The notes under the pieces were generated by a model. It was not told the DNA's origin. It did no database searches and saw nothing but the letters and a program-made list of their open reading frames with translations. The translations under genes and the position numbers were made by a program. Positions 1 through 64,000 of a DNA stretch of 64,000 nucleotides are shown in pieces (within the stretch, counting starts at the first letter, position 1; each line of letters opens with the position of its first letter). Source of the DNA: Spirometra erinaceieuropaei (lineage: Eukaryota > Platyhelminthes > Cestoda > Diphyllobothriidea > Diphyllobothriidae); assembly GCA_902702965.1 (NCBI GenBank), contig CACRXP010000164.1, forward strand, positions 801,698 through 865,697, read 5' to 3'.

Positions 1-302
1 GTCTTCTGTTCGACTTCGCCAACACGCGGATATTGGCGCGAGCCGGCAACAAGACAGGACGAGAGCTGTTGGAGGCGTGGGTGTCGGACACCAACTCTAT
101 CAACAGACACATCGATTTGCCTACGTGTTATCCGCGCTCCGCCCTCGCAGCCAGGTGGCGCAGCTCACACCGTCGCGAAGTGCAAACGGCGTCACCACGC
201 CGGGGGACCATCGTGGACCAGGCGGCACAAACCCTACCTAGCCACGGACGTACTCCCCCTCCCCCCCGCAAGGACGAGTTGCTGCAGTCAAGTAGTCTCT
301 GA
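1..302 (+). pseudogene. Penelope-like element, C-terminal end of the GIY-YIG endonuclease ORF (cut by window edge)
   Basis: The frame is open from the left edge to a TGA at 300-302, so the ORF starts outside the window. Readable motifs are FDFANTRILARAG, GRELLEAW and NSINRHIDLP. The order (aromatic block, R-E-x2-E-x-W, then I-N-R-H-I-D-L-P) is what I know from the C-terminal tail of flatworm Penelope-like retroelements, behind the GIY-YIG endonuclease core. In such elements this domain nicks target DNA to prime reverse transcription. The remainder after the INRH motif is low complexity (Pro/Arg/Ser rich). The block is much more GC-rich than the sequence that follows. No stop or frameshift is seen in the visible part, but an active full-length copy cannot be judged from 100 codons. 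Assignment to PLE is family knowledge from motifs, not a database match. Confidence 0.7.
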
Positions 303-1837: not shown

Positions 1838-2012
1838 ACTCCGCCAGCGATCGATGAGCACCCCTTACGGCATTGTATATACCCGATCGCAACCGACAGG
1901 ACGATGAGTCCGTAGCTCTGTGGCTAGGGTGGTGGACTCCTAACCACGAGGTCGTGGGGTTGAACCACAGGTGGCTATTCCAGTCTCTCTTGTCTTTGTC
2001 GGTAGTGCTTAA
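1838..2012 (+). mobile_element. tRNA-Arg-headed short repeat, internally deleted copy
   Basis: This copy is in sense orientation. An A-box-like TAGCTCTGTGG lies at 1913-1923 and a B-box-like GGGTTGAACCAC at 1957-1968. The anticodon-loop position reads CTCCTAA, giving CCT at 1939-1941, so the head resembles tRNA-Arg. After the head the text jumps directly to GGCTATTCCAGTCTCTC. The 5' half of the hammerhead present in other copies (stem I, CTGACGA, stem II, GAAA) is therefore deleted. The copy ends in the shared tail around TTTGTCGGTAGTG. It is the most tRNA-like of all copies. Confidence 0.75.
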
Positions 2013-7341: not shown

Positions 7342-7481
7342 ACAGTCTACAGCGACCGCTTCTCAACCCTCTGGGCAGAGGTCTTTGTAGATTATCCACC
7401 AGACTGTCCACAACGATCGCCTCTCAACTCTCTGAGATGAAATGATTGTAGATAATGCACTAGATCGTCTACAACAGGCGA
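7342..7481 (+). repeat. Degenerate tandem repeat, period about 57-61 bp, about 2.4 units
   Basis: Three successive units share the order CAGTCTACAGCGACCGC or CAGACTGTCCACAACGATCGC, then CTCTCAACYCTCTG, then TGTAGATWATSCAC. The third unit stops after TAGATCGTCTACAACAGGCGAT. Units differ by several substitutions and small indels, so the array is old. It lies in non-coding sequence and matches no other array in the window. Confidence 0.6.
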
Positions 7482-12924: not shown

Positions 12925-13035
12925 CGAGGCCGGGTGTTCCACACTTCGGGGTTTGGCATGACTAACTGACGACGTCTAATAAGCCAGAAATGGCCATTCC
13001 AGTCTCCCTTGCCTTTTTCGGTAATAACATATTGC
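12925..13035 (+). mobile_element. 3' part of the tRNA-headed hammerhead repeat
   Basis: The copy starts just after the tRNA-like head (GGGTGTTCCACACTTCGGGG), contains the ribozyme, and ends in the tail CTTTTTCGGTAATAACATA. The tail here has a T5 run, which could serve as a Pol III terminator. The head is missing, so this is a 5'-truncated copy. Confidence 0.85.
12960..13004 (+). ncRNA. Hammerhead ribozyme motif (type I), weakened copy
   Basis: In order: GACTAA (stem I 5' side), CTGACGA, CGTCTAATAAGCCA (stem II), GAAA, TGGCCATT (stem III plus AUU site) and CCAGTC (stem I 3' side). Compared with the consensus, the two core-proximal stem I pairs are lost (AA opposite CC) and stem II has one mismatch (GTCT/AGCC). 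The core letters are intact. Confidence 0.7.
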
Positions 13036-15371
13036 CAATAAGAAACCGATAAAACATCGGCAAACAAAACGGCAGCCACTTGTTTGCCTTACTAGCTAGC
13101 AGGCACGTCTTATAGCACACTAGCAGCCAGGTGAATTAAGTTCATTAGCCATGGGAAGGTCTGTGACACTTACTTACTCACGCCGATTTTCGACTTGCGA
13201 AACCGGCAATCAAAAGACAGCAAACTTAAAAATGTTGACAGACCCGCATGACAGCGGGCCTTCTTGTACGTTAGGGCGTTATCGAAAGAGTGTTGAGGCC
13301 ACTTGATGGCAGAAGAGTGCAAAAGACCGACTCGACGTTTCTGCGCCATGCGATGCGACCGAAGAGCCGAACCAATAAGCAGATAAAATTATCCATCATC
13401 CACTGACAACGATGTAATTGTGGTGGATTCAACTACGTATGGTGGATTGGCCGAAACTATAGACGAAAATGTGCAAACATTACCGAATTGTGCGGAAGCT
13501 TGGCTAGAGGTCACAGGCGGCGACGCACACAGTCTTGCCTGACCACAGCTCTGACGTTGGCGCGGTCGACATCGTGGAGCAGGTTGATGGTCCAGCGGCA
13601 GGACGGGTACAGCTGGCACGGTTGTTGAATGCACATTCAGCCAAACCATATATGTATATATAAGCATAGAAGTGAGTTCGGGGAAACAGTTCAGAAGAGT
13701 GAGATTCGAGCGCTAAAACAAGACATTTATTCGGCTGACTTTTCGGATTTTTATTAAGATCCATCGTCGGAGACGGAGGTAAGGGACAAATACGGGGCGG
13801 TATTTATAGAATGTAGATGCTATGCCAACACATACTGACCACAATTTACAGCTCACGCATTAACGGCTGACGATTCTAACTGGTGCGACGATTGCATGCT
13901 TGTATACATCCGAGTCGTTAATTGCAGCATTATCCGTCACCGGTTTTATTTAGTGCATACTAGTTACTCCGTCATATGGTAGGGGTTAGGTATATGCGCA
14001 GGTTAGGAAAATGCCAACCGTTGTCTAACAATTTCGCCACAGTTTTAACACTCTCGCTTTACTAGCAGACGCAGGCATTGCATTTCGAGTACTTTTTACT
14101 ATCTGAGTGTTCTCCGTGCTTTTGCCCCACTAAAGAACTACGCGTGGGCACGCAGAACGGTGAACCAACGTAGATATTCCAGCAGCACCGACTCCTCGGG
14201 GCAATACAGGTCGCCAGATGACCGACCAAAACTCTATCGAACAGCACCTCTTTTAAAAATATTGCAGGCAGTTCTTCCTAGTTCTCTTTACCCCGCCCAC
14301 ACGCTTAACCCTTACCTGTCATTTGGTTTTTGGATGCTGTCCTTGAAAGCGGTTTTCACCGCGTCCTAACGGCGTGGTCAACTACTGTGTTCAGGCAAAC
14401 TTTAGGCAACGAATATGGTGGGGGAGGTCACTACATGGGCAAGTCCACAGTGGACCCGAGAAGCATAAATCAAACAACCCCTCATGCGGTTGTTTTCCTG
14501 CGTGGACAGTTCGGCGTCGTCAAACGTTAAGGTGTAATTGGGTCTGATTAAATGGATTGCGAGCTAACGAGTAACGTTGCTCCTTCTCGCCGCTGCGACG
14601 TGTTCGGCCATCCGCGTCCAGTGTAGTTTCCTACTTTCTCCTATGCAGTTATTTTGCCCGCAATTGAGCCTTACTAACTTAACCACTTTAGACGCTTCCT
14701 GCGGGGGCTGTCAGTCATCCAGCCTCATTACTTGGCACCTGATGGCTCCTTTAGACTAACACGACCTTGTAGTCAAACAAACTCCCTGGACGACTTCCCC
14801 CGACACCCAACCTCATAAACAATCAGATCGCACGGGTATACCGGCTGCAGTCCTGAAGTTTCCGACGTGGCGCAGACCGCGAGCTACTCAGTTTTGGAGA
14901 AACGCTAAAACTCAAGCTGACATACACAAATACGAGCCCTCTTACACTACATTTTTGGCTGTAGCAGAAATTATGTGTCCGGAATTCGTCCCAAAATAGT
15001 TTTCCCGAAATGTATTTATAGACTTAAATTGCAAGCGCTGAGTGCATTATTCGTTTGCTCGCAGCGTACTATCCGGTCGGATTGTTAACAATGTCTTGTT
15101 CTGTGATATCCTAAAGTACGACATAAAGTTTTCTAGAAATCAGAAAATGTCTTGTACACACTGTCGATTCAACTTGGTAGGTGTAAAAACTTATTTGACA
15201 GGACCCTGACAAGAACTACTGAAAGTCCAAAGTAGACTCGTGTTTCGTCGACTTAGTTCCGCTAAATGACGCCGTTTCTTGAGTTTCGACCACTTAATGT
15301 GTTCCTTTGCTTCCTCTTTGTTCTTTCTTCCAGATATTTCGATTTTCGACGATGACTCGTTCCACATTCGA
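13036..15371. other. Spacer, moderately GC-rich in parts
   Basis: 13390-13760 has overlapping minus frames rich in Pro/Ser/Thr and Arg, with no recognised domain. About 13800-13840 shares TATAGAATG-x-AG-x-TGCTATGCCA with 28192-28220, a hint of another old dispersed repeat. An isolated GGGGTTAGG near 13983 is too short to call telomeric. Confidence 0.4.
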
Positions 15372-24000: not shown

Positions 24001-24422
24001 GTTTTACCGGTCTGCATTATCGTCACTGAATGCGGAAAGTCAAAATCATGACCCGACTCAAGGCTCTTCACGTAAACTTTAGGCAATCTGACATGCGTCC
24101 GCATAATTTGTCTGGTGTTGCCCAGCTATCAGTCGAACCCTTTTTCCGGTCGTTTGAAGAGTATTTTCAGCAGGAAAAGGTGTTAGGAATTCGCGCTGTC
24201 CACTTGCATTTAGTTCGCAATCGATCTAAATTGGTTTACTGCAACCGATTGCTTCTTATTCACATACAATGGCCGTACCTGATAGAGGCAAAAATGTGCT
24301 TGATTTGAACGGATTTCTGCCTAAGCATGATGAGTATCCGTTGTAACTAACTTCTACTCTATGTGCTTTGTAGGAAAGCAAGGGGAACGACGTAGTGGTT
24401 AAGCAACGGTAGAGTGCTTTAT
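21066..24422. other. 3' region of the PLE copy, then AT-rich spacer
   Basis: 21066-21530 may be the PLE tail. From 21540 to 24400 the sequence is strongly AT-rich, with no frame above 100 codons, no recognised domain and no match to other repeats in the window. Confidence 0.4.
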
Positions 24423-24613
24423 GCAGAATGGCATTACCGACAAAGACAAGGGAGACTGGAATGGTCTTGTCTGGCTTATTAGCCGTCGTCAGCCAGTCTT
24501 ACCCAACCCCGAAGTGTGGAACAGACGAAGTTAGAACTCGCGACCTACTAGTTAGTAAGGCACAACGGAACGAGTGAGGTTCTTAAGAACGATTGGTGAG
24601 CGTCCCCTACCAC
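24423..24613. mobile_element. Ribozyme repeat: minus-strand piece fused head-to-head to a plus-strand piece
   Basis: 24423-24554 is the repeat in minus orientation, from the tail (GCAGAATGGCATTACCGAC) through the hammerhead into the tRNA-like head (ACTCGCGACCTACTAGTTAG). At 24555 it switches to plus orientation, TAAGGCACAACGGAACGAG through GATTGGTGAGCGTCCCCTAC. The switch is abrupt, without spacer, and the intervening leader and half the head are missing. Confidence 0.8.
24454..24498 (-). ncRNA. Hammerhead ribozyme motif (type I), GAAA mutated to GACA
   Basis: On the minus strand: GACTGG, CTGACGA, CGGCTAATAAGCCA, GACA, then AGACCATT and CCAGTC. Stem I is a perfect 6 bp. The change in the invariant GAAA, and the altered stem III strand (AAGACCAT instead of ATGGCCAT), should inactivate this copy. 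Confidence 0.75.
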
Positions 24614-29691: not shown

Positions 29692-29861
29692 ATTGTAGGG
29701 GGCGCTCACCGATAGTTATTACGGAACTCACATGTCCCCATGTGCTTTACGTGCTCTTCCTCGAGCCCGACTAGCAGCCGGACAGCAGCGCACGATATAG
29801 ACGGAATGGCAGTACCCTTGTCTTGGCATGACTCTTGTGTTTGTCGGTAATGCCATTATGC
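29692..29861. mobile_element. Ribozyme repeat fragments, minus then plus, no ribozyme core
   Basis: 29692-29800 matches the minus-strand copies from the GGGGGCGCTCACCGAT block to the unit end (CAGCGCACGATATAGAC) and runs over the unit junction into GGAATGGCAGTACC. After 33 nt, TTGTGTTTGTCGGTAATG (29834-) is the tail in plus orientation. This again shows opposite-orientation pieces side by side and a copy that spans the circular junction. Confidence 0.65.
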
Positions 29862-36442: not shown

Positions 36443-36683
36443 GGGGATAGGGCATATGGCATGTGGGCGCTTACCGATCGTTTTTACGTAGCCCACGCGT
36501 CTCGTTTTGCCTTATGGGCTCTCTCTCTCTCTGTCGAGACTAACCAGCAGCCGCAAAGCGGCGCATGAGATGGGTAGAACGTTATTACCGACAAGGACGA
36601 ATGAGATTGGAATGGCCATTTCTGGCTTGTTAGCCGTTGTCAGCCAGTCATACCCAACCCCGAAGTGAAGAACATCTGGGCCA
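36443..36683 (-). mobile_element. Ribozyme repeat copy that crosses the unit junction
   Basis: On the plus strand it begins in mid-unit (GCGCTTACCGATCG), runs to the unit end (CAGCAGCCGCAAAGCGGCGC), crosses the junction (GTAGAACGTTATTACCGAC) and continues through the ribozyme to CAACCCCGAAGTG. The tRNA head is absent. A (CT)n expansion (36519-36532) sits where other copies have a single CTCTCTCGAG. A copy that starts in mid-unit and continues past the junction cannot derive from a simple linear monomer. Confidence 0.8.
36605..36649 (-). ncRNA. Hammerhead ribozyme motif (type I), core-mutated
   Basis: Minus strand: GACTGG, CTGACAA (consensus CTGACGA), CGGCTAACAAGCCA, GAAA, TGGCCATT, CCAATC. 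The invariant G8 is replaced by A, which should abolish cleavage. Stem I has one mismatch. Confidence 0.75.
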
Positions 36684-37485: not shown

Positions 37486-38771
37486 TCATGCATAAGTCAC
37501 CTTGGCTGCTCCACCTTTCTGTGATGCACACGGTGGACACCGTCGGGTATCCCTCAGATGATGGAATTCGGCTAGAGTTTGCACACCAACATTCGACCCT
37601 ATGTACGCAGGCCAATATAAACTGCAAAATGTATGCCAAATACAAGCGTGTTTTAATACATTTTGCAGACTGTTTTTTTAAACATAATTTCGTTTTTCAT
37701 GTACGAATCCTAAATTCGTGAATAGCACGCCCCATCAGGCCTGACAATTACGTCAACGTAATTAAACACAAAGCATAAAAGCCTGCATATATTCACTCAT
37801 AATTTAGCATTTAGGGGCATGATCCCATTTCAAATAATCTCCAGCTCCATGCTGAAATACAGTAGATGTGCTAACTCATTAAATGTCAACCAAAATTTCG
37901 AAATGCGTTCTCGTTTCGAAAAGATTAATTAAGTAGTGTTGTAAAACTAATCATGATGCAGCATAAATCTATAATGATCCAATTACCTCAGGGTGTCAAC
38001 TTTCGAGAGAACTTATTCTCGACTGCATGCAAGATCTATACTCTGCAAAAAATGACTACTTATGTAGCATGCAATTTTCTCACTGATTTTCGATGCCCTT
38101 GAAAATTCAATTATATTGCTTGGGAAACATGCATAAAAATATTCATTCTTTTACTTATTCGGTAGAAAATCACGTCTTCTTCCAAATTCATACTCAAAAG
38201 AAGAGTATAATTCGGTTTTAAAGAACTTTTCTAATTCCCGAATAGTTTTGAACCCGACCTGCTGTTACACTTGCGTTCAGGGTTTCAAAACTCCAAGCTG
38301 TATATTTTCCATGCATGTCTCTACGGTGTTAAGAGGAGACCATATGAGGGTCATAAAACTAAGCAGTGGATTTGAGCAATATTGTTAACTTTACAAGCCA
38401 CATTCTTAAATGCAGATACATGACGTTTCATGAACGGCCATTTAACGGTATTAAAAACTTTTGCAATTAGAAACTTTTTTAAAACTGAAGTATATTCTTC
38501 TTTTGGGTATAAAATTGGAAGAAGACGTGAATTTCTACCGAATGAGTAAAAGAATGAATATTTTTATGCATTTTTTCCATGAAATATAATTGAATTTTCT
38601 AGGGCACCGAAAATCAATTAGAAAATTGCATGCTACTAATGTAGTCATTTTTTGCAGAGTACAGATCTTGCATGCAGCCGAAAATAAGTTCTGTCGAAAG
38701 CCGACACCCTGAGGTAACTGGATCATTATAGATATATGCTGCATCGTGATTAGTTTTACAACACTACTTAA

Positions 38772-39103
38772 GCAGAATGGCATTACCGACAAAGACAAGG
38801 GAGACTGGAATGGCCATTTCAGGCTTATTAGCCGTCGTCAGCCAGCAATACCCATGCCCGAAGTGTGGAACACCCGAGCCTCGAACTCGCGACCTGTTGG
38901 TTTAGAATTTCACGCCTCTACCCACCGGGCCACGTGCCCGTTGCCCTGTCGGTTTTCGGTCGGGAATATACAATGTTAGGGGGCGTTCACCGATCGTTCA
39001 TACGGAACTCACTCGTTCCGTTGTGCCTTAAGGGCTCTCTCGAGCACAACCAGCAGCCGCACAGCGGCGCATGATGTATAGGCAGAATGGCATTACCGAC
39101 AAA
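38772..39103 (-). mobile_element. Complete ribozyme repeat inserted in a MITE, with 22-bp terminal direct repeats and a 5-6-bp target duplication
   Basis: The insertion starts and ends with the same 22 bp (GCAGAATGGCATTACCGAC plus AAA: 38772-38793 and 39082-39103), 310 bp apart. It is flanked by CTTAA on both sides (38767-38771 and 39104-39108). Removing it restores the MITE arm (ACTTAATTTATCTTTTCG, as in the left arm). It contains the tRNA-Arg-like head, the ribozyme and the leader. So one unit plus 22 bp of the next unit was inserted, as expected from copying a circular or multimeric template. Confidence 0.9.
38803..38847 (-). ncRNA. Hammerhead ribozyme motif (type I), near-complete
   Basis: Minus strand: TGCTGG, CTGACGA, CGGCTAATAAGCCT, GAAA, TGGCCATT, CCAGTC. 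The core is intact. Stem I keeps four Watson-Crick pairs plus one wobble. Stem II is GGCT/AGCC with loop AATA, but the core-proximal position is C opposite U. Confidence 0.8.
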
Positions 39104-40949: not shown

Positions 40950-41864
40950 GAGAACTTTGAGACAGTTTTGCGTAGATTTTAGGTCAACATTTGACCTTGA
41001 ATTGCGTGCACCATTTCGATTACACAGAAAACACTAGGAAGGGAAAAAGCGAATTTTAAAAAAGAGCTGAAAAGGAGGAGATGCGATTTTTAAAACAATA
41101 ATTTGATTGTTTTGACGACTCCGCTTCTAACTTTCGCACGTAATCAAGGTCGGCTTCGGATTAGGTCACTGATACTGAATGAGGACGAAAATGCTAAATG
41201 TCGGACGAATAAAATTCCTGTCCCAGCGATTGCATTTCCTTCTTGTCAACATTCTTGATTACAGCCTAAAGCCAGCTTTGGCTAATAGGAGATGGCGGAA
41301 ACATCAAAAGGATGAGGGAATTCCCTCTGTTTCTTTTCGAATACTGACAGGTGGAATTAAGAGCCGCAAATCACTTCATCCTAATTTTCAGTATGCGTCC
41401 AAAAGTCATATACTAATTACAGAAATTTGTAGAATACTTTCCAGCATATAGTCACCGGAGGCCAAACACCATGGCTTATTTGAACACCGTAAAAAGTTAG
41501 CATTCCGGCATGGCGTGATGGGTACATATCACCAAAGTTCTCAGAAAATGCTTGATTGATTAATTCCTACTCCGTTCCAATTTCTTGTGTGCACTTCTTT
41601 ATTAGTCTTGTAAATAAGCATGCGAAAGTTCCACCCAACAAAAATCAATTCTAGTAGGTGCGCCATCTGGCATTCGAACAAAAAGAGCAAAAAATTGTTC
41701 TTGCGATCGTCATATAGATCTTCTCCTTTTAAATCATGGCCAGTGAGTTTCGCATTTTGAAGGTTGGCATCTTTCCATAGATCTATGTGCCTCGATACGT
41801 CAATTCAATTAATTTTCATGGTTATCGCGAAAAGGGTGTTTTGAATTTAATGATTTATTTTGAC
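40950..41864. other. Spacer, possibly intronic to the exon at 40594
   Basis: A plus frame 41179-41451 starts at ATG but lacks any recognisable feature. No repeats matched. Confidence 0.4.
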
Positions 41865-42080
41865 CCAACTGTGAATAACTCGGCGACATCGGTGGGACTC
41901 GAATCCACGACAGCAAGGGGGAGACTTTAGTACAGCCAATGCTCTGGCCACCTAAGCTACGAGGCCCACCGGAAGACGTGAGTTTAATCACACTTGAGTC
42001 AAGTTTACCCGCCTAACCTACTGCAACGTCTGAAGTCCCCCAAATCGGATACAGTAAGCTGACTACCCAAGCAGTATTTT
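41865..42080 (-). mobile_element. Second tRNA-like repeat family, single-arm copy
   Basis: On the minus strand, roughly 41884-41965 folds as a tRNA-like head: a CCTCGTAGCTTAGGTGG A-box region, anticodon-arm text GGCTGTACTAAAG, and a GATTCGAGTCC B box. It then continues into ATAACTCACAG-type flank. On the head's 5' side, the spacer seen in the 62-kb foldback is present (TTTACCCGCCTAACCTACTG) but the opposite arm is missing or decayed. Confidence 0.7.
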
Positions 42081-44146
42081 TTAAGTAAGTCACCTAGAAT
42101 CCGCTAGATGACAACCAGGCACACGTAATTCACGGATGTTTTAACAGATTTTGAAAAATTGATTTTGGATTATTAGAAATATCTTAAAACACCTATTAAT
42201 TCGATCATTTAGTTAATATGACTTTACGCTGTTTATAAATCATGCTTATTTATTCGAAGTCGTAGGAGACATCTAACTTGTAGTACTGGGCTGATGTCCA
42301 GAGTACCTTCCGCATTTCTCCATATTACAGTCCTATCTAGATCTTCCCAAATTGTGAGACTATTTTATAATTTTAATGCGTCAATCAAAAAATAAGTCGT
42401 TTGAAATTAATGGTGTCGACAGTCCTTGGAAGGGAATCTGAGTTTTCCCTGCCCACTAGAGGAAACGTGGGGAAATAAGCATGAGTATAAACCAATTCTC
42501 CAAAAAATAACAGGTTTGCAACTATAGCTTCGAAATATGCTACGAAATAAGTGCGAGGAGTCGATAAGATCACTAGACTATAAGTATAAACCTACTGCAT
42601 GCAAATTGGCGAAGAATTTCAAAGGTACGAAACTGCATCATGCGCATAACGAAGGTAATATGAGGTATGACAGGCAAAGGCCCTTAATAACTTCTCACAT
42701 AAGATAAGACAGCCATTTTATCTAATTGTAACGACATATTTTTGGTAAGTGCTTGAGGTTGCACTAGCTTTGACTGTGAATACAAACAGTCCCGGTAGTA
42801 CGTCCTAGTCACATGTTCATGAGCTTCTTCATGAGGTATCCCGTGGACCAGAGAGAAGTCTGCGGGGTTTTCACAGGAACACGCGCGAGCATGGGGACCG
42901 GTAGTGCCGTCCTCGTGAGGACTGGGCGTAGCCGAAAATCGCCATTTCATCTACCATATATATTTGTTCACATGGGGCTTTGCTGAAAGTTTGGTGTGAG
43001 CTACTTCAGAGACAAGGAGAGGAAAAATCTAGCTGTTTCGATGACCCCGTACCTTACCCTCTATACTGTGTTGAAGGATCGTTTAGAACGACAAGCGACA
43101 TCAGCACCGCTTTACTTCTACAGTGACTGTTCCTGGACCGGCCAAGTTTAGCACAAAGACCTCAACCATTCGCGGGCAACCCGCCAGACTTTACTCTTCA
43201 TGAAAGCCACCTTATGAAATAAATAATCAGAGATGAAATTTTTTCCTTGCTTTTGTTGACTTGCAGCCTGCTACAATCTCTGCAACACATCGGAGCGAAG
43301 GAGTTAACTCGGTTGGTGCGGATAGATCTCATAGGCTGACATGTCTCAAGTACTTTGTCGACAATAGGATACCACTAAGGTGCCAATAATGGTCGTGATT
43401 TCATCAGCCCTGCTGACTCTTGTCGCGGCAGTTTGCTCATTGTCATCGGACATCCGCGCCCTACCCCGTTGCTAATTACTTGGTCCAGGTCAAGTCACAG
43501 CACTGCATACGGAGGCGGGAGGTCCTTGCTCTTGTTAACTCAGGCAGTTCGCAGCTCGCGCACTTGTCGCCTCTTGAGAGAATCTCGGTCTCGTCCAACT
43601 TTGAAGTGTGGTCAGGCCCCATCGAATGGTTTGCGATCTTTAAGTTCGCATCCTTCCTCCTCACTGCTGTTACGTCCTCGGCCATTCGGTGACTTTATAT
43701 TTTTCACTAGAAAAGGTTGGTAAATTCTGAGCAAATTTCCATATTACGTTTGAAAAGGCAGTTGGCGAACATATGTCTTCGGTAATTCATCGTCAGGCCA
43801 ATACAATTAAATAGAGAACGAACTTGCGAGGTATGGACAGGATTTTAATGTCTCAGGGGACAGGGTTAGTAAAATTCCTTGTTCTCACACCATCTACATC
43901 AGCCTGTTGAGGACGATGGGGCTGGGATGGGCGGAAAAGGGAAGGGTTCGGTTTAGGCTGCAAGCGCCGTCTGTATGTCGTGCACATGGAGTGCGTGTGA
44001 CTGTTCCTAAGACGTCGAGACGGCGGTGTGGGAATAAGGCATTTGACTAACCCTGCCCCCTGGGACACATCTAAATATTGTCAGTAACTCACATGTTCAG
44101 TATACATGTATTGGTATTGAAATGCCGATGACTTACTGAAAACATA
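42081..44146. other. Spacer; one GC-rich stretch open in three frames
   Basis: 43420-43723 is GC-rich and open in two plus frames and one minus frame. The minus frame (43476-43685) begins at ATG and reads plausibly (LDETEILSRGDKCASCELPE), but is only 69 codons and has no other support. No gene is called. Confidence 0.4.
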
Positions 44147-45909: not shown

Positions 45910-46350
45910 CTGGTTAGATTTTTCTCGTCCGGACTAATGTCCCGATTTGTCCAGCATCGTTGCCTTGCTCGCAACCGCACCGTATCTGGTAGACAACTCC
46001 AGACGTTTCCTGCCACGGCAGGGGGCCTTTCAATTTCATGACCTGGCGTCTGATTGTTGCCTTCGGTCTATGTGAAACTCTATCATCGAGGGGTATGAGA
46101 AGCCGGCTGGCGTTCCTCACGTATGGAAGCGCTTGCCGAAATCTCGAGCCGGTAGAACTTCTCCTTTCATCGCGTTTCCGCATGCGCCGGCAGTCAAAAT
46201 TGCTCGGGTGCCATTCGTAATAATTACGCCTCGATGATATTGTAATTTGGCAGCCTTGTCTTTAGGTTCACTGTAATGCACCTTCCTATGATGATAGGTT
46301 CGAGTAATAATCCGAAACCTCAGACAAGTAAACAACTCGGTCGAGTGACC
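45910..46350 (-). pseudogene. Penelope-like element fragment spanning the start of the GIY-YIG domain, broken
   Basis: Read from 46350 downward: RTYHHRKVHYSEPKDKAAKL and QYHRGVIITNG in one frame; after a frameshift, RKRDERRSSTGSRFRQALPY. Then come SHRPKATIRRQVM, KGPLPWQETSGVVYQIRC and CEQGNDAGQIGTLVRTR. GVVYQI corresponds to the GIY motif and NDAGQIG to a damaged YIG motif, preceded by the linker that joins reverse transcriptase and endonuclease in flatworm PLEs. It stops at 45910 before the C-terminal INRH region. No reverse transcriptase YxDD is seen upstream. It appears closer to the 1-302 lineage than to the 20.8-kb one. Confidence 0.75.
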
Positions 46351-50879: not shown

Positions 50880-51040
50880 AAGGGGATTAAAGGCAGAGAG
50901 AAGGAAGACTTGAATGGCCATTTCTGTGTTTGTGACGACCATCAGCAAGCCATAAAAAACACCAGGTTAGCAACCTCATAGGCCAAAAATCGCGTACCAC
51001 AACCTTATAACCACCGTGCCGCAGGCTTCTGTCACAAACG
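50880..51040 (-). mobile_element. Ribozyme repeat, degenerate copy
   Basis: GACTTGAATGGCCATTTCTG, then CGACCATCAGCAAGCC, then ATCGCGTACCACAACC and TAACCACCGTGCCGCAGGC follow the minus-strand order tail, ribozyme, tRNA head. In the ribozyme the core is CTGATGG rather than CTGANGA and stem II is disrupted. Stem I (GGCTTG/CAAGTC) still pairs, although both strands differ from the consensus. Confidence 0.6.
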
Positions 51041-60107: not shown

Positions 60108-60360
60108 GACCTTAACCCTAGTCCTAACTTTAACCCTAATCCTAACCTTAACCTTAAATGTTAACCCTAACCCTAACCGAAATCGTAAACTTAACCGTAG
60201 CCCTTAGACATCGCCGTAACCGAAAAACCTAACTGTCATGCCGAAACCTAATAATTCGCTCAAACCCTAACCGTAATCCGATAACATAAGCCTAAAGGCA
60301 TAGGCCTAAGCCGAAAATCGGAAACCCCTAACCGGTGCCCTAATCCTAACCTCGAACGTA
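60108..60360 (+). repeat. Interstitial telomeric-type array (CCCTAA), degenerate, about 250 bp
   Basis: It opens with TTAACCCTAGTCCTAAC and contains the cleanest run TTAACCCTAACCCTAACC near 60160. The units then decay into variants such as CCTAACTG, CCGTAACC and AAGCCTAAAGGCATAGG. The orientation is constant (CCCTAA on the plus strand). It looks like an old internal array that has accumulated substitutions, not a chromosome end, since 3.6 kb of unrelated sequence follows. Confidence 0.85.
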
Positions 60361-60470: not shown

Positions 60471-61343
60471 CCCTAATTTTTGTGTGTAAAATCAAGTTCC
60501 GAGCTAAAATATTCATTATCGTGAGGAGTAGTATATGGGTATTTTATCTACGCCAGAATGCGCGTTTCCCCGGCCACATGCAAAATAGCACTCGCCGAAT
60601 AATGACTGCTTATACAATAGGAATTTTTCACTATTTTCGATATTCTTGCATTCCAAAATATTGTGGTAGAAAATATGCCCAAAATATCTGTTATAATGCT
60701 GATTTCGTAGAAACTATGTGTTCTTTATCTGTTTTGCCGGAGGAATGGGGATATTTCGTACTGTAATCATAATAATTTTGAGAAGCATAAAGCTTCGGCT
60801 CAGATAATATCGCATTCAAAGTTCTTTCAATGAGTTTAATGATGTAAGAAACGTGCACCATCTCCGTAGCATATGGAACTCTCCTAAAATTAAAAAGGAA
60901 AGAACGATTATCCTTAAATGGAAAGTTGGAAGCATATATTGTAGAAGCAACAAAGTCAAATGCGAGGAGAATACGACTTAAAAATTATACAGGAGTTACA
61001 AATTATTAAAAACTGGAAAATGCACATTTTCGAGTAAGAAAGTTGAATTAAACTTAGTGAAAAAAATGATTCGTGCAAGCTAATATTTATTGTGCGTGAT
61101 ATCTATAAAACCTGTTTGTTTCCTCTCGCTCAGGCTTATTCAGAAAAACAGCGTTTCAAGTAATTTGCGCATTCTTCTTATGACCACAACTTCGGTTATA
61201 CAGGAATTGGAAATAAATTCGAGACGTAGCCACCAAAGTGCAATTTCCAATCGCGCCCGAAAGCATTCTAAACGTAAAGCTAGCAAACGAACATTCAAGG
61301 AAATCGTTCGTAGTAGGTCCACGTTTAACAATATTCTCGATAG
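60471..61343. other. AT-rich spacer
   Basis: No recognisable gene. A plus frame 61090-61545 runs from spacer into the ribozyme repeat and is a composite shadow. Confidence 0.45.
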
Positions 61344-61646
61344 TATGGTATTACCAACAAAGACAAGGGAAACTAGAATGGCCATTTCTGGCTTATTTGC
61401 CGTCGTCAGCCAGTCATACTCAACCCCGAAATGTGGAACACCCGAGGCTGGAAATCCCGACCTGTTGGTTAGAAGTCCATGCCTCTATCCACCGGGCCAC
61501 GAGCCCGTTGCCTTGTCGGTTTCGATCGGGAATATACAATGGTAGGGGGCGCTCACCGATAGATCTTACGGGAATTACTTGTTTCGTTGTGCCTTACAGG
61601 CTGTCACTCGAGCCCAACCAGCAGTCCCACAGCGGTTCATGAGCGC
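61344..61646 (-). mobile_element. Ribozyme repeat, minus-strand arm of a large inverted pair
   Basis: On the plus strand it runs from the tail (TATGGTATTACCAAC) through ribozyme, tRNA-Arg-like head and leader to CAGCGGTTCATGAGC. Positions 61344-61597 pair with 61647-61900, giving arms of about 254 bp around a 49-bp spacer. The head carries typical internal Pol III promoter text. Confidence 0.85.
61371..61415 (-). ncRNA. Hammerhead ribozyme motif (type I), intact core
   Basis: Minus strand: GACTGG, CTGACGA, CGGCAAATAAGCCA, GAAA, TGGCCATT, CTAGTT. The stem I 3' strand differs at two positions from the consensus, but both changes give G-U pairs with GACTGG, so all six pairs remain. Stem II shortens to GGC/GCC-type pairing. 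Confidence 0.8.
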
Positions 61647-62020
61647 GTAAGGCACAACGGGAGGATTCAGTTCCGTAAGATAGATCGGTGAACGCCCCAT
61701 ATCATTGCACATTCCCGATCGAAACCGACAGGCAACGGGCTCGTGGCACAGTGGTTAGAGACGTTGTCTTCTAACTAACAGGTCGCGAGTTCGAGCTTCG
61801 GGCGTTACACACTTCAGGGTGGGGTATGATTGGCTGACGACGGCTAATAAGCCAGAAATGGTCATTCCAGTCTCTCTTGTCTTTTTCGGTAATAGCATAC
61901 TGCCTATATCATGCGCCGCTGTGCGGTTGCTGGTTAGGCTCAAGAGAGGGCCCTTAAGGCTCAACGGAACGAGTGAGTTCCGTAAGAACGATCGGTGAGC
62001 GCCCCTCTACCATAATATTC
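61647..62020 (+). mobile_element. Ribozyme repeat, plus-strand arm, one full unit plus ~65 bp direct repeat
   Basis: It starts at GTAAGGCACAACGGG and ends with TAAGGCTCAACGGAACGAG to CGCCCCTCTACCAT. The same leader segment occurs at both ends (61648 and 61955), 307 bp apart. A box TGGCACAGTGG lies at 61744-61754, B-box region GAGTTCGAGCTT at 61787-61798, and the anticodon-loop position reads CTTCTAA (TCT at 61770-61772, tRNA-Arg-like). The tail has T5 after GTC (near 61880). The permutation point differs from that of the 38772 copy. Confidence 0.9.
61828..61872 (+). ncRNA. Hammerhead ribozyme motif (type I), best-preserved plus-strand copy
   Basis: Stem I GATTGG (61828-61833) pairs with CCAGTC (61867-61872), five Watson-Crick pairs plus a U-G. 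CUGACGA (61834-61840) fits CUGANGA. Stem II is GGCT-AATA-AGCC. GAAA lies at 61855-61858, stem III AUGG/UCAU is nearly palindromic, and the predicted cut follows AUU (61864-61866). It lies 30 nt downstream of the B box on the same strand. The pair next to the core in stem II is C opposite A rather than the canonical G-C. Confidence 0.85.
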
Positions 62021-62198
62021 TAGGCTCTGCAGAGCAACACGTTGATTTCGGATGCACGTTTGGACATTTGTTTCCTCTTTTCAAGGATTTCGGCTGTCTA
62101 CTATCCGAAGAAATATTCGGTTTTTGTTGATTTACAATTCATAGGTATTTTGGCAGATTTTGAATAATTCATATTGACCTAACTGTGAAAAACTCGGC

Positions 62199-62277
62199 GC
62201 CTCGGTGGGATTCGAACCCACGCAGCAAGGAGAAGGCTTTAGTACAGCCAACTCTCTAACCACATGAGCTACGAGGC
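62199..62277 (-). tRNA. tRNA-like sequence (pseudogene/SINE head), left arm
   Basis: It mirrors the right-arm copy: 6-bp acceptor stem, D arm, anticodon arm GGCT/AGCC around GTACTAA, long variable region, and T arm GTGGGTTCGAACCCAC-type. The anticodon position reads ACT, which is not a standard tRNA species, so this is a tRNA-derived head rather than a functional gene. Confidence 0.6.
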
Positions 62278-62412
62278 CCCGCCGGACGACTCGAGTTTAA
62301 TCACATTTGGGTCAAGTTTACCCGCCCAACCTACTGCAACGTCTGGAATCCACCAAATCTGATACAGTAAGTTGACTGCCCAAATGTGATTAAACTCGAG
62401 TCGTCCGGCGGG

Positions 62413-62491
62413 GCCTCGTAGCTCAAGTGGTTAGAGCGTTGGCTGTACTAAACCTTTCTCCTTACTGCGTGGGTTCGAATCCCACCGAGGC
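62413..62491 (+). tRNA. tRNA-like sequence (pseudogene/SINE head), right arm
   Basis: Acceptor GCCTCG/CGAGGC, D arm GCTC/GAGC, A box TAGCTCAAGTGG (62419-62430), T arm GTGGG/CCCAC with B box GGGTTCGAATCCC. The anticodon arm in this arm has lost a G (CTAAACC instead of CTAAAGCC), weakening the stem. A 12-nt variable region recalls class II tRNAs. No CCA or terminator T-run follows directly. Confidence 0.65.
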
Positions 62492-62526
62492 GCCGAGTTT
62501 TTCACAGTTGGGTCAATATGAATGAT

Positions 62527-64000
62527 TTACAATTTTTTTTAACAGCAGTACTAATCTCAGGCTTTGTGTATTACTCCAGCTTTACCGAATCGACTGCAAT
62601 TTGCGCTTAAAGAGAAATAAGGGTGCTTTCTAGTAGTTTACATTTCGCCCTGTTTATCTCTCCTCCACGAAAAAATGTTGTAGCCAGACGACCTGCCGGC
62701 CTACTCTCGGTGAATGCTCACATCTTACAAGCAGGAAATACGCCCAAACACGACAGTCTGCCTTGTCATGAATTACAATGGGAAGGAGACTGCATCAAGC
62801 ACCGACCGCATAACTTGCGCACTTTCCATTGGACGATTCGCTTGGCTTCCCTCAATTATAATTTGTTCCGATAGCTGTAAATCGGATTCGATTCCCTCGC
62901 GGTCATATTACCACTTTTAGTGGTATGCTAAATCCTAGAGATCCCCTTCTTTCCTCAGGTGTGAATTGGTACAAAAGTAATTTAAATACATAGATAGACA
63001 CTGAGATATAGGATAAGGTTTACCAGTATTCGTAGTTCGTTTGCTCTAAGACCGTGCGTGTCATCTGCTCGGAACATGGTGCGTCACAGCGGGCTCTAAG
63101 AAAGTAAAGCCGACCTCTTACATCTACGCGCAGAGGCTTCCTGAAACTTTTTATAACTAAACCAGGAGACTGTAATAATCGTTCCTGACTTGTCCGTCGT
63201 CATTAGCCAGCTATAGTCAAGCCCAATTGTTTGTCTCCAAATCTAAACCTGGGTCAAGGTCACGGAGTCGGGAGGACAGCGGCGATCTTGAGCCCCGATC
63301 AGTAACCGCCAACACTAGTAAATCTCTAAGTAATTCAAATCCTGAGGTAGACCGTTAAGCGTTCAGCGAGTTAAACCTGAGACAGTTCGAGAAATGGTCT
63401 GTAAAACGTGAAGTACAACCATGTTCTCTACGCACACAGGAGACTAAACAACACGTGGCCCGTCCTACCCATTCCTTTTGCATTGACACTGGAGCTGCCG
63501 AAACTAGACACAGATGAGACAACTCCTCCCCAGTTACGTCACAGGACGACAAAAATAGGCAAACGCGTCCGGCAAACTCCCGAGCTGAGCCTGTGACGGC
63601 AGCGAGAAGCGACCTCAACAGTCGCAGGAAACAAGTCCACCTGACTATGTGAAATCTCAACCTCAGGTGGGGTGATAAACATGTTACCGACCTAACAGAT
63701 GCGGCCGCGGTCTGAGCTTTTGCAGTAAGAAATTCGACCGTTGTCTGAACCTGACGTGCTGATACCTCCTCGACTTCGGAGAGGCTGGCCCGTGTGGGTT
63801 TTCTGCATACTTGGCAATATTAAAGTCATCTTCGTATGTTTAACGGGGACCAGGCCAGACAGCATAGGATCTCAGGGCGTGTTTAAGAACTTACAAGTCA
63901 ATCTTTTCAGTAAGTTTGAATGAATAGATCTGATAGCCCGTATAAACCACGTTTGAACCGATGACAAGTACTCTAAAAAACATACTCGAGCTCCATGTCT
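62527..64000. other. Spacer; possible retroelement relic near 63.4 kb
   Basis: 63350-63680 is GC-rich and open on both strands; one plus-frame segment reads HSFCIDTGAAETRH, see rejected items. A faint ribozyme-repeat fragment lies at 63168-63232. The rest is unassigned. Confidence 0.4.
63168..63232 (-). mobile_element. Ribozyme repeat, faint fragment
   Basis: GGAGACTGTAATAATCG, TTCCTGACTTGTCCGTCGTC and ATTAGCCAGCTATAGTCAAG keep the order of the tail-to-ribozyme segment, with many changes. The hammerhead core is destroyed. Confidence 0.4.

What the first reader, a model, noticed from the sequence alone, without database searches (positions are those of the whole stretch)
61828..61872. A hammerhead ribozyme inside a tRNA-Arg-headed short repeat
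In the sense strand of a ~307-310-bp repeat the order is stem I (GACTGG), CTGACGA, a 4-bp stem II with AATA loop, GAAA, palindromic ATGGCCAT, T, and stem I' (CCAGTC). All single-stranded core letters match the hammerhead rule CUGANGA...GAAA with an NUH site (AUU). The layout is type I, with a very short stem III as in newt and schistosome satellite ribozymes. It sits about 30 nt after the B box of a Pol III-type promoter on the same strand, so a transcript would contain both. Six copies in the window show the fold (12960, 24454, 36605, 38803, 61371, 61828). The schistosome Sm-alpha repeat is a known parallel; this sequence family may be a separate, undescribed relative.
Basis: partly seen in the sequence, partly recalled or inferred. 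Interest (0 to 1): 0.92.

Follow-up and report, generated by a model that had tools for sequence, protein, structure and literature searches.

The report
Hammerhead RNA circle riding Penelope retrotransposons
A 309-312-base repeat, with about 20,000 hammerhead-ribozyme-like sequences in what is likely the Spirometra tapeworm genome, often lies in head-to-head insertions with two preferred end points, the same form that Penelope-type retrotransposons of that genome show, so it is likely a ribozyme-made RNA circle that Penelope machinery copies into new sites.

Summary
No Rfam hammerhead model matches, even on an exact-consensus copy; the base of stem II is C.A. HHR sites genome-wide: 20,487 (reversed-pattern control 0). 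The HHR stretch is among the best-conserved windows of old copies.

New here: the finding is one arm of a head-to-head insertion (61342-62013) flanked by an 8-bp duplication. In the loci read, arms mostly end at one of two RNA positions (A or B; 127 of 141), have scattered starts, mostly run past the cleavage site, and often form divergent pairs (52 '-+' groups, 2 '+-'). Pairs join one A and one B end (35 of 41), often at microhomology, and about half show target duplications. Penelope-like elements (PLEs) here show the same form: 20 divergent, 0 convergent pairs; two ends about 35 nt apart, one of each in 5 of 6 pairs where both could be told. Published PLE behaviour agrees.

Best reading: a metazoan non-LTR retrozyme with a tRNA-like head whose RNA, likely circular, is copied in trans by PLE machinery. 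Self-cleavage, circularity and PLE-RNA contact are inferred.

The parts
61330..61337 (.). left copy of the target-site duplication AATATTCT
61342..61642 (-). left arm of the head-to-head insertion (unit 45 round the circle to 35, B-type outer end at 61342)
61371..61415 (-). hammerhead copy of the left arm (core intact, one stem II pair broken)
61641..61642 (.). junction of the two divergent arms, 2-nt overlap in the BLAST alignment
61641..62013 (+). right arm (unit 84 round the circle to 148, A-type outer end at 62013)
61744..61754 (+). A box of the tRNA-like head (TGGCACAGTGG)
   Evidence: consensus A box
61787..61797 (+). B-box-like GAGTTCGAGCT of the tRNA-like head
   Evidence: consensus
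61828..61872 (+). hammerhead motif of the finding: stem I 61828-61833/61867-61872, CTGACGA 61834-61840, stem II 61842-61845/61850-61853, GAAA 61855-61858, predicted cleavage after 61866
62014..62021 (.). right copy of the target-site duplication AATATTCT
38769..39103 (-). single-arm copy with B-type end, hammerhead 38803-38847
24420..24612 (.). head-to-head copy (minus arm 24420-24546, plus arm 24556-24612), hammerhead 24454-24498 with broken GAAA
36465..36667 (-). single-arm copy with A-type end, hammerhead 36605-36649 with broken core
12925..13040 (+). 5'-truncated copy with B-type end, hammerhead 12960-13004
29696..29799 (-). 5'-truncated copy with A-type end, without the hammerhead
1848..2004 (+). 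old copy in two pieces
50886..50954 (-). old fragment with a decayed hammerhead (50907-50951)

Best explanation
The feature is one hammerhead-like motif of a 309-312-nt repeat that often sits in the genome as head-to-head insertions of the same form as those of the Penelope-like elements of that genome, and the repeat is likely a retrozyme: an RNA predicted to be made by Pol III, cut by its own hammerhead, closed into a circle and copied into new sites by Penelope-like machinery. Steps shown from sequence: the hammerhead core and its conservation, the two preferred outer ends, the scattered 5' ends, the head-to-head arms, the A-with-B pairing of ends, junction microhomology, target duplications, and the same architecture for PLEs of this genome. 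Inferred steps: (1) Pol III transcription from the A and B boxes of copies with tandem units; (2) self-cleavage after AUU, probably by paired hammerheads because stem III is only 2 bp with a palindromic GGCC loop in the consensus; (3) circularisation, probably by a host tRNA ligase; (4) a PLE protein, perhaps a dimer, nicks both DNA strands and starts one cDNA at site A and one at site B of the RNA, both in predicted hairpins (loop or 3' side); (5) the cDNAs run a variable way round the circle, often pair at microhomology and are filled in, leaving <-- --> with a target duplication. Copies with one hammerhead per arm, including this one, should be unable to release a full circle; 11 of 184 arms hold two or more and would be the source copies.
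For: HHR: 20,487 sites against 0 in the control. Among 105 distinct HHR-like sequences N7 is the most variable core position (C 85, T 16) and the cleavage-site base is never G (T 93, C 11, A 1). The HHR window is 0.851 identical to consensus in 18 old copies against a median window of 0.766 (best 0.858); HHR exceeds the rest in 68 of 86 copies. Insertion form: 117 groups, 52 exactly '-+', 2 '+-'; 127 of 141 outer 3' ends in unit 131-160 (69) or 16-50 (58), together 65 of 309 positions. Pairs with both ends classed: 35 AB, 3 AA, 3 BB, p = 2.4e-6 against independence. Shared flank string of 8 nt or more: 25 of 49 divergent pairs against 4.4% of mismatched flanks; 8 of 44 single arms against 0.85%. 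Junction overlap of 4 nt or more: 16 of 54 against 1.7% simulated; 149 of 178 arms cross the cleavage site; 7 of 178 5' ends at unit 307-309 or 1-4 (4.0 expected). PLE side, from capped lists: 39 of the 40 best PLE copies stop at query 1053-1062; 20 divergent and 0 convergent neighbour pairs among 99 merged copies; two ends about 35 nt apart, one of each in the two pairs read at both ends and in three more by coordinates. Literature: the PAc PLE cuts and extends both strands from two adjacent internal RNA sites (PMC11167929); bdelloid PLEs are mostly head-to-head where inverted, with 8-10 bp duplications in the passages seen and an optional tail on one arm (PMC3846280); PLEs proposed as retrozyme movers (PMC7229834, PMC7761336).
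Against: No Rfam hammerhead match at any threshold tried. The C.A at the base of stem II and the 2-bp stem III predict weak monomer activity. Pair covariation is near the shuffles: 19 to 69 of 500 reach the observed values. The sequence likeness between the PLE end and site A (CGATC(C)GGTGAGC) is not significant alone: 202 of 2000 shuffles reach it; in 14 other PLE fragments searched, the exact TCGGTGAGC box occurred only in three stretches that are retrozyme copies by their letters, and CGGTGAGC once more (L086) at no known end. One PLE pair (C507, arms 1.2 kb apart) has the long end on both sides. Single-arm groups are common (57 of 117), 24 of 49 divergent pairs show no shared string of 8 nt, and 18 of 54 junctions hold extra bases instead of overlap. 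The 5' ends are not even: 39 of 178 lie in one bin near unit 155-185, in part because sample 1 was picked with a query that starts there. Sibling arms are often no more alike than copies elsewhere. A second tRNA-like family without a hammerhead core seen also occurs head-to-head, so the hammerhead is not needed for this form. No control with RTE or CR1 LINEs was obtained. No RNA data were available.
Confidence: 0.74

Rival explanations
1. An ordinary tRNA-derived SINE moved by an RTE or CR1 LINE, with head-to-head arms from L1-style twin priming; the hammerhead is a passenger.
For: RTE-BovB and CR1 each make about 10% of the Spirometra and Sparganum genomes (PMC8166898, passages); tRNA-like A and B boxes are present.
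Against: Twin priming gives one fixed 3' end and a variable inverted end (recalled); here both outer ends are mostly fixed and paired A with B. No poly(A) tail is seen by eye at the ends printed. Most arms pass the cleavage site. PLEs of the same genome show the same form. A LINE control is missing.
Confidence: 0.12
2. The element is PLE-mobilised, but from uncleaved multimeric transcripts of tandem arrays; the hammerhead acts little or not at all. (This shares the mover with the best reading, so its odds overlap with it.)
For: Anolis PLE inserts RNA in vitro with hammerhead-dead templates (PMC11167929); tandem arrays exist (L031); no Rfam match.
Against: The hammerhead stretch is among the best-conserved windows in old copies; most copies are not arrays, with 11 of 184 arms holding two or more complete HHRs; tandem units within an arm share private variants (20 comparisons, median ratio 0.44 against 0.90 between insertions), as copying one circle twice would give, though a homogenised array could too.
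Confidence: 0.22
3. Self-priming: one cDNA folds back and copies itself, making the inverted arms (the model raised for bdelloid PLEs).
For: Head-to-head palindromes in bdelloid PLEs were read this way (PMC3846280, passages).
Against: The two arms start at different unit positions: 0 of 54 within 10 nt, median distance 72.5 nt; the outer ends are mostly A with B, not copies of one end.
Confidence: 0.04

Closest known systems
Metazoan non-LTR retrozymes (Cervera and de la Pena 2020, PMC7229834)
   Same: 170-400 nt units, type I HHR with weak stem III in some, tandem copies in places, no long reading frame (longest stop-free run 79 codons), predicted highly self-paired circle, high copy number; PLEs co-occur
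   Different: tRNA-like Pol III head; mostly short head-to-head or single-arm insertions rather than plain tandem repeats; two preferred RNA end points; C.A at the base of stem II; GC 56% against the reported <50%; RNA not tested
Sm-alpha and Sj-alpha hammerhead SINEs of schistosomes (PMC2770079, PMC8490949, passages)
   Same: flatworm, SINE-like, tRNA-related head, type I hammerhead, more than 10,000 copies (Sm-alpha)
   Different: different tRNA likeness as reported there (tRNA-Gln for Sm-alpha); Sm-alpha hammerhead letters recalled as different, not compared by a call; insertion architecture of Sm-alpha not examined here
Penelope-like elements: PAc of Anolis (PMC11167929) and bdelloid Penelope (PMC3846280)
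   Same: head-to-head insertions, 8-10 bp duplications, two alternative RNA start sites with the longer 'tail' end on one arm, internal start in a stem-loop, hammerhead in the PAc RNA
   Different: this element has no long reading frame; its two sites are about 107 nt apart rather than 30-40; template is likely a circle
Newt and axolotl satellite retrozymes (PMC7229834)
   Same: stem III of one or two pairs with a tetraloop (palindromic in one form), acting better as dimers; a mismatch at the base of stem II is known in one axolotl form
   Different: unit sequence not compared by a call; tRNA-like head; host phylum

Membership tests
Type I hammerhead ribozyme | core CUGANGA ... GAAA with NUH cleavage site | tested here: met
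   consensus core intact; N7 variable; H17 T 93, C 11, A 1, G 0 of 105
Type I hammerhead ribozyme | three stems, open at stem I | tested here: met
   stems I 88.4%, II 89.8%, III 89.3% of cells paired in 98 aligned sequences; base of stem II is C.A
Type I hammerhead ribozyme | covariance-model match in Rfam | tested here: not met
   no hammerhead family at E<=10
Type I hammerhead ribozyme | compensatory changes in the stems | tested here: inconclusive
   7 of 12 pairs have a double change, 40 of 500 shuffles reach that
Type I hammerhead ribozyme | self-cleavage | not testable with these tools
   needs an in vitro assay
Metazoan non-LTR retrozyme | 170-400 nt unit with type I HHR, multicopy, tandem units in places | tested here: met
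Metazoan non-LTR retrozyme | target-site duplications | tested here: met
   25 of 49 divergent pairs with 8 nt or more, 4.4% in control
Metazoan non-LTR retrozyme | GC below 50% | tested here: not met
   consensus 56.0%; the paper states it as a shared trait of its repeats
Metazoan non-LTR retrozyme | circular RNA in vivo | not testable with these tools
   no RNA data held
PLE-mobilised element | head-to-head arms with duplications | tested here: met
PLE-mobilised element | two alternative internal RNA start sites, one per arm | tested here: met
   PLE of same genome
PLE-mobilised element | shared recognition sequence with a resident PLE | tested here: inconclusive
   202 of 2000 shuffles score as high
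PLE-mobilised element | LINE families of the genome do not make such pairs (specificity) | not tested
   PF00078 searches not answered
tRNA-derived SINE | A and B boxes | tested here: met
   A box matches TRGYNNARNNG; B box imperfect
tRNA-derived SINE | head recognised as tRNA | tested here: not met
   ARAGORN on consensus, cmscan on array

The most novel reading that the evidence does not exclude
A ribozyme-made RNA circle is copied at two places at once: a Penelope dimer holds one circle, nicks both DNA strands, and each strand primes its own cDNA at its own hairpin site on the circle. The two antisense strands then meet and pair, so no separate second-strand step is needed. The retrozyme has reduced its parasitism of PLEs to two start sites, a promoter and a hammerhead.
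Probability: 0.45. Interest if true: 0.87.

Novelty: new variant of a known kind. Interest (0 to 1): 0.74.

Why it matters
Which machinery moves animal retrozymes is an open question. The authors who defined them call PLEs a strong candidate (PMC7229834) and write that the repeats show no conserved motif that would reveal the autonomous partner (PMC7761336). Here the scars themselves point to PLEs, and they name two RNA start sites that can be tried at once in the existing PLE in vitro assay. The A-with-B pairing also speaks to an open point of PLE biology: how both strands are copied and joined. Judging by titles and abstract starts, no paper listed in the searches made reports this for a hammerhead element; the three Sparganum/Spirometra genome papers listed hold the word 'hammerhead' 0 times.

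Tried and rejected
Rfam at gathering and relaxed thresholds on window, array and an exact-consensus copy: no hammerhead. A tRNA call on the head: none. A shared sequence box between PLE and retrozyme ends looked striking by eye but did not beat shuffles and was not found as such in other PLE fragments; it is not used as proof. My notebook gives it more weight than it deserves, and one search gives 66 and 57 ends where the recount gives 69 and 58. Self-priming of the arms: rejected by unequal arm starts. Sibling-arm identity alone is ambiguous: many pairs are no closer than copies elsewhere; the ratio test is clearer but still mixed (42 sibling comparisons, median 0.70, range 0 to 1.0). Pfam on nine long window ORFs found nothing. 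A search of the local loci for LINE reading frames gave no usable control.

Full report
WHERE. The window is G000:C164:801698-865697 of a 758.7-Mb assembly. A PLE reading frame from it matches Sparganum proliferum (90% identity) and Spirometra erinaceieuropaei proteins best, and its contig C1 is 5,490,141 bases long, the length printed for the longest scaffold of Spirometra erinaceieuropaei GCA_902702965.1 (PMC12249497, passages). I infer that organism; the mitochondrial check (PF00115) did not complete.

THE HAMMERHEAD. Four of six keep the whole core. The string with up to 3 mismatches occurs 20,487 times in the genome, 0 times reversed. Rfam finds no hammerhead. The likely reasons are a 2-bp stem III and a C.A at the base of stem II; that is my inference. 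In favour of function: among 105 distinct HHR-like sequences (162 sites found in the loci with up to 14 substitutions; some of the most divergent are out of register) the most variable core base is N7, which the rule leaves free, and the cleavage-site base is T 93, C 11, A 1, never G. In 86 copies (arms with the exact 33-mer in L048-L087 were dropped, because those loci were picked by it) the hammerhead is closer to consensus than the rest of the copy in 68 (Wilcoxon p = 1.5e-7), and in 11 of the 13 most diverged (p = 0.010); over 18 old copies its window scores 0.851 against a median of 0.766, with the best window at 0.858. Covariation is weak: on 98 aligned sequences (7 of 105 dropped as out of register) 89.0% of cells pair (22 of 500 shuffles reach this), and 19 to 69 of 500 shuffles reach the other measures. 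Most copies are decaying, so this says little either way.

THE INSERTION FORM. I aligned 79 fetched loci plus the window to the circularised consensus unit, numbered from the cleavage site (L001-L008 left out as duplicates; L088, a PLE locus in the same file, has no arm). Of 117 insertion groups 52 are exactly '-+', 2 '+-', 57 single arms and 6 other. Of 141 outer 3' ends of arms of 80 nt or more, 69 lie at unit 131-160 (A) and 58 at 16-50 (B), 14 elsewhere. The 5' ends are scattered but not even: one bin near unit 155-185 holds 39 of 178, in part because the first sample was picked with a query that starts there. Among 54 divergent arm pairs, 41 have both ends classed: 35 AB, 3 AA, 3 BB (p = 2.4e-6). 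The pattern holds in both samples: 14 AB and 3 AA in loci chosen by likeness to the window copy, 21 AB and 3 BB in loci chosen by the exact 33-mer. Both samples favour young copies. The outermost flanks share 8 nt or more in 25 of 49 divergent pairs, against 4.4% of mismatched flanks. The two arms begin at different unit positions (0 of 54 within 10 nt) and overlap by 4 nt or more in 16 of 54, against 1.7% in simulation; 18 of 54 junctions hold 1 to 44 extra bases instead. The copy of the finding is such a pair: minus arm 61342-61642 with a B end, plus arm 61641-62013 with an A end, and AATATTCT at 61330-61337 and 62014-62021.

CIRCLE OR MULTIMER. 149 of 178 arms cross the cleavage site, and 5' ends do not pile up there (7 of 178 against 4.0 expected), so cleaved linear monomers are not the main template. 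Some arms exceed one unit, and L031 holds over four units at 99-100% identity (its left border touches an N). Tandem units within an arm share private variants (20 comparisons, median ratio 0.44, against 0.90 between insertions; sibling arms 0.70 over 42 comparisons). Circles fit best given the conserved hammerhead, but uncleaved multimers are not excluded. The consensus circle has MFE -127.8 kcal/mol; the A and B end ranges fall in two predicted hairpins, in the loop or on its 3' side. The array unit has -121.8 against -100.3 (sd 5.0) for 50 mononucleotide shuffles.

PENELOPE. A GIY-YIG search gives 34 matches among 150 scored of 4416 first-look candidates. L088 holds an open frame with a YVDD reverse-transcriptase motif (by eye) and a Pfam GIY-YIG domain. 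A DNA search with its 3' part lists 40 best copies: the query locus itself and 39 that stop at query 1053-1062 (copies with the longer end stop there too, because the query locus has its own flank beyond). Merging the coordinates of the capped lists gives 99 copies with 20 divergent, 0 convergent and 2 same-strand neighbour pairs under 3 kb. Ten fetched ends show two forms: six stop at CTCAG(AT), four run about 35 nt further. The pairs at C157 and C114 have one of each, and C15:2511, C232 and C61 likewise by coordinates, while C507 has the long end on both sides; the other pairs were not read at both ends. So the PLE family searched carries the same scar as the retrozyme. This agrees with Frangieh et al. 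2024 (PMC11167929; parts 1 and 2 of 4 read): a purified Anolis PLE cuts and extends both strands and starts at two adjacent internal RNA sites, most often in a stem-loop. It also agrees with the 2013 bdelloid study (PMC3846280; passages): inverted head-to-head copies, duplications of 8, 9 and 10 bp, an optional tail on one arm.

WHAT IS KNOWN. Animal retrozymes: PMC7229834 (abstract, Results parts 1-2 of 3, and passages). PLEs as candidate movers: same paper; no motif to prove it: PMC7761336 (passages); LINEs or PLEs named as possible movers in PMC11722881 (passages). Schistosome Sm-alpha: PMC2770079 and PMC8490949 (passages). Penelope elements make about 10% of the Spirometra and Sparganum genomes, as do RTE-BovB and CR1: PMC8166898 (passages). 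By titles and abstract starts, no paper listed or 85 reports this family or this signature for a hammerhead element; subscription papers are mostly not held.

LIMITS. No RNA evidence, no LINE control, samples biased to young copies, one PLE family searched, capped genome lists, and counts that rest on BLAST boundaries. A second tRNA-like family with no hammerhead core seen also occurs head-to-head (window 62157-62533, L051, L070), so the insertion form belongs to the mover, not to the ribozyme. The odds of the best reading and of the second rival overlap, since both have the same mover.

Noticed in passing
window 62157-62533 (head-to-head), 41849-42070 (one arm); L051 and L070 (head-to-head), L052 and L059 (one arm): A second tRNA-like repeat (ARAGORN reads tRNA-Ser(act); the TGTACTA loop looks tRNA-Tyr-like by eye) also occurs in divergent head-to-head pairs, with a palindrome between the arms (Rfam MIR6440 sub-threshold match at 62281-62409). 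No hammerhead pattern match lies there. It may be another non-autonomous rider of the same machinery.
   Followed up: partly
window 9-233, 14483-14743, 43468-43688, 45923-46302: Fragments of Penelope-like reverse transcriptase/GIY-YIG reading frames.
   Followed up: partly
window 60109-60178: Array of imperfect ACCCTA/ACCTTAACCCTAATCCTA units, telomere-like, inside a contig.
   Followed up: no
L065, L069, L086: Clusters of three to five retrozyme arms, partly in alternating orientation, as if insertions land near or in older ones.
   Followed up: no
L031 1217-1998: A PLE fragment itself in head-to-head arms (minus 1217-1588, plus 1597-1998), right beside the retrozyme array.
   Followed up: no
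unit 155-185 of the retrozyme: An excess of arm 5' ends just past site A (39 of 178; 12 of 67 classed arms in the sample not picked by likeness). It could be reverse transcription stopping after one turn of the circle, or sampling.
   Followed up: partly
window 7345-7475: Two copies of a 61-bp unit (74% matches).
   Followed up: no
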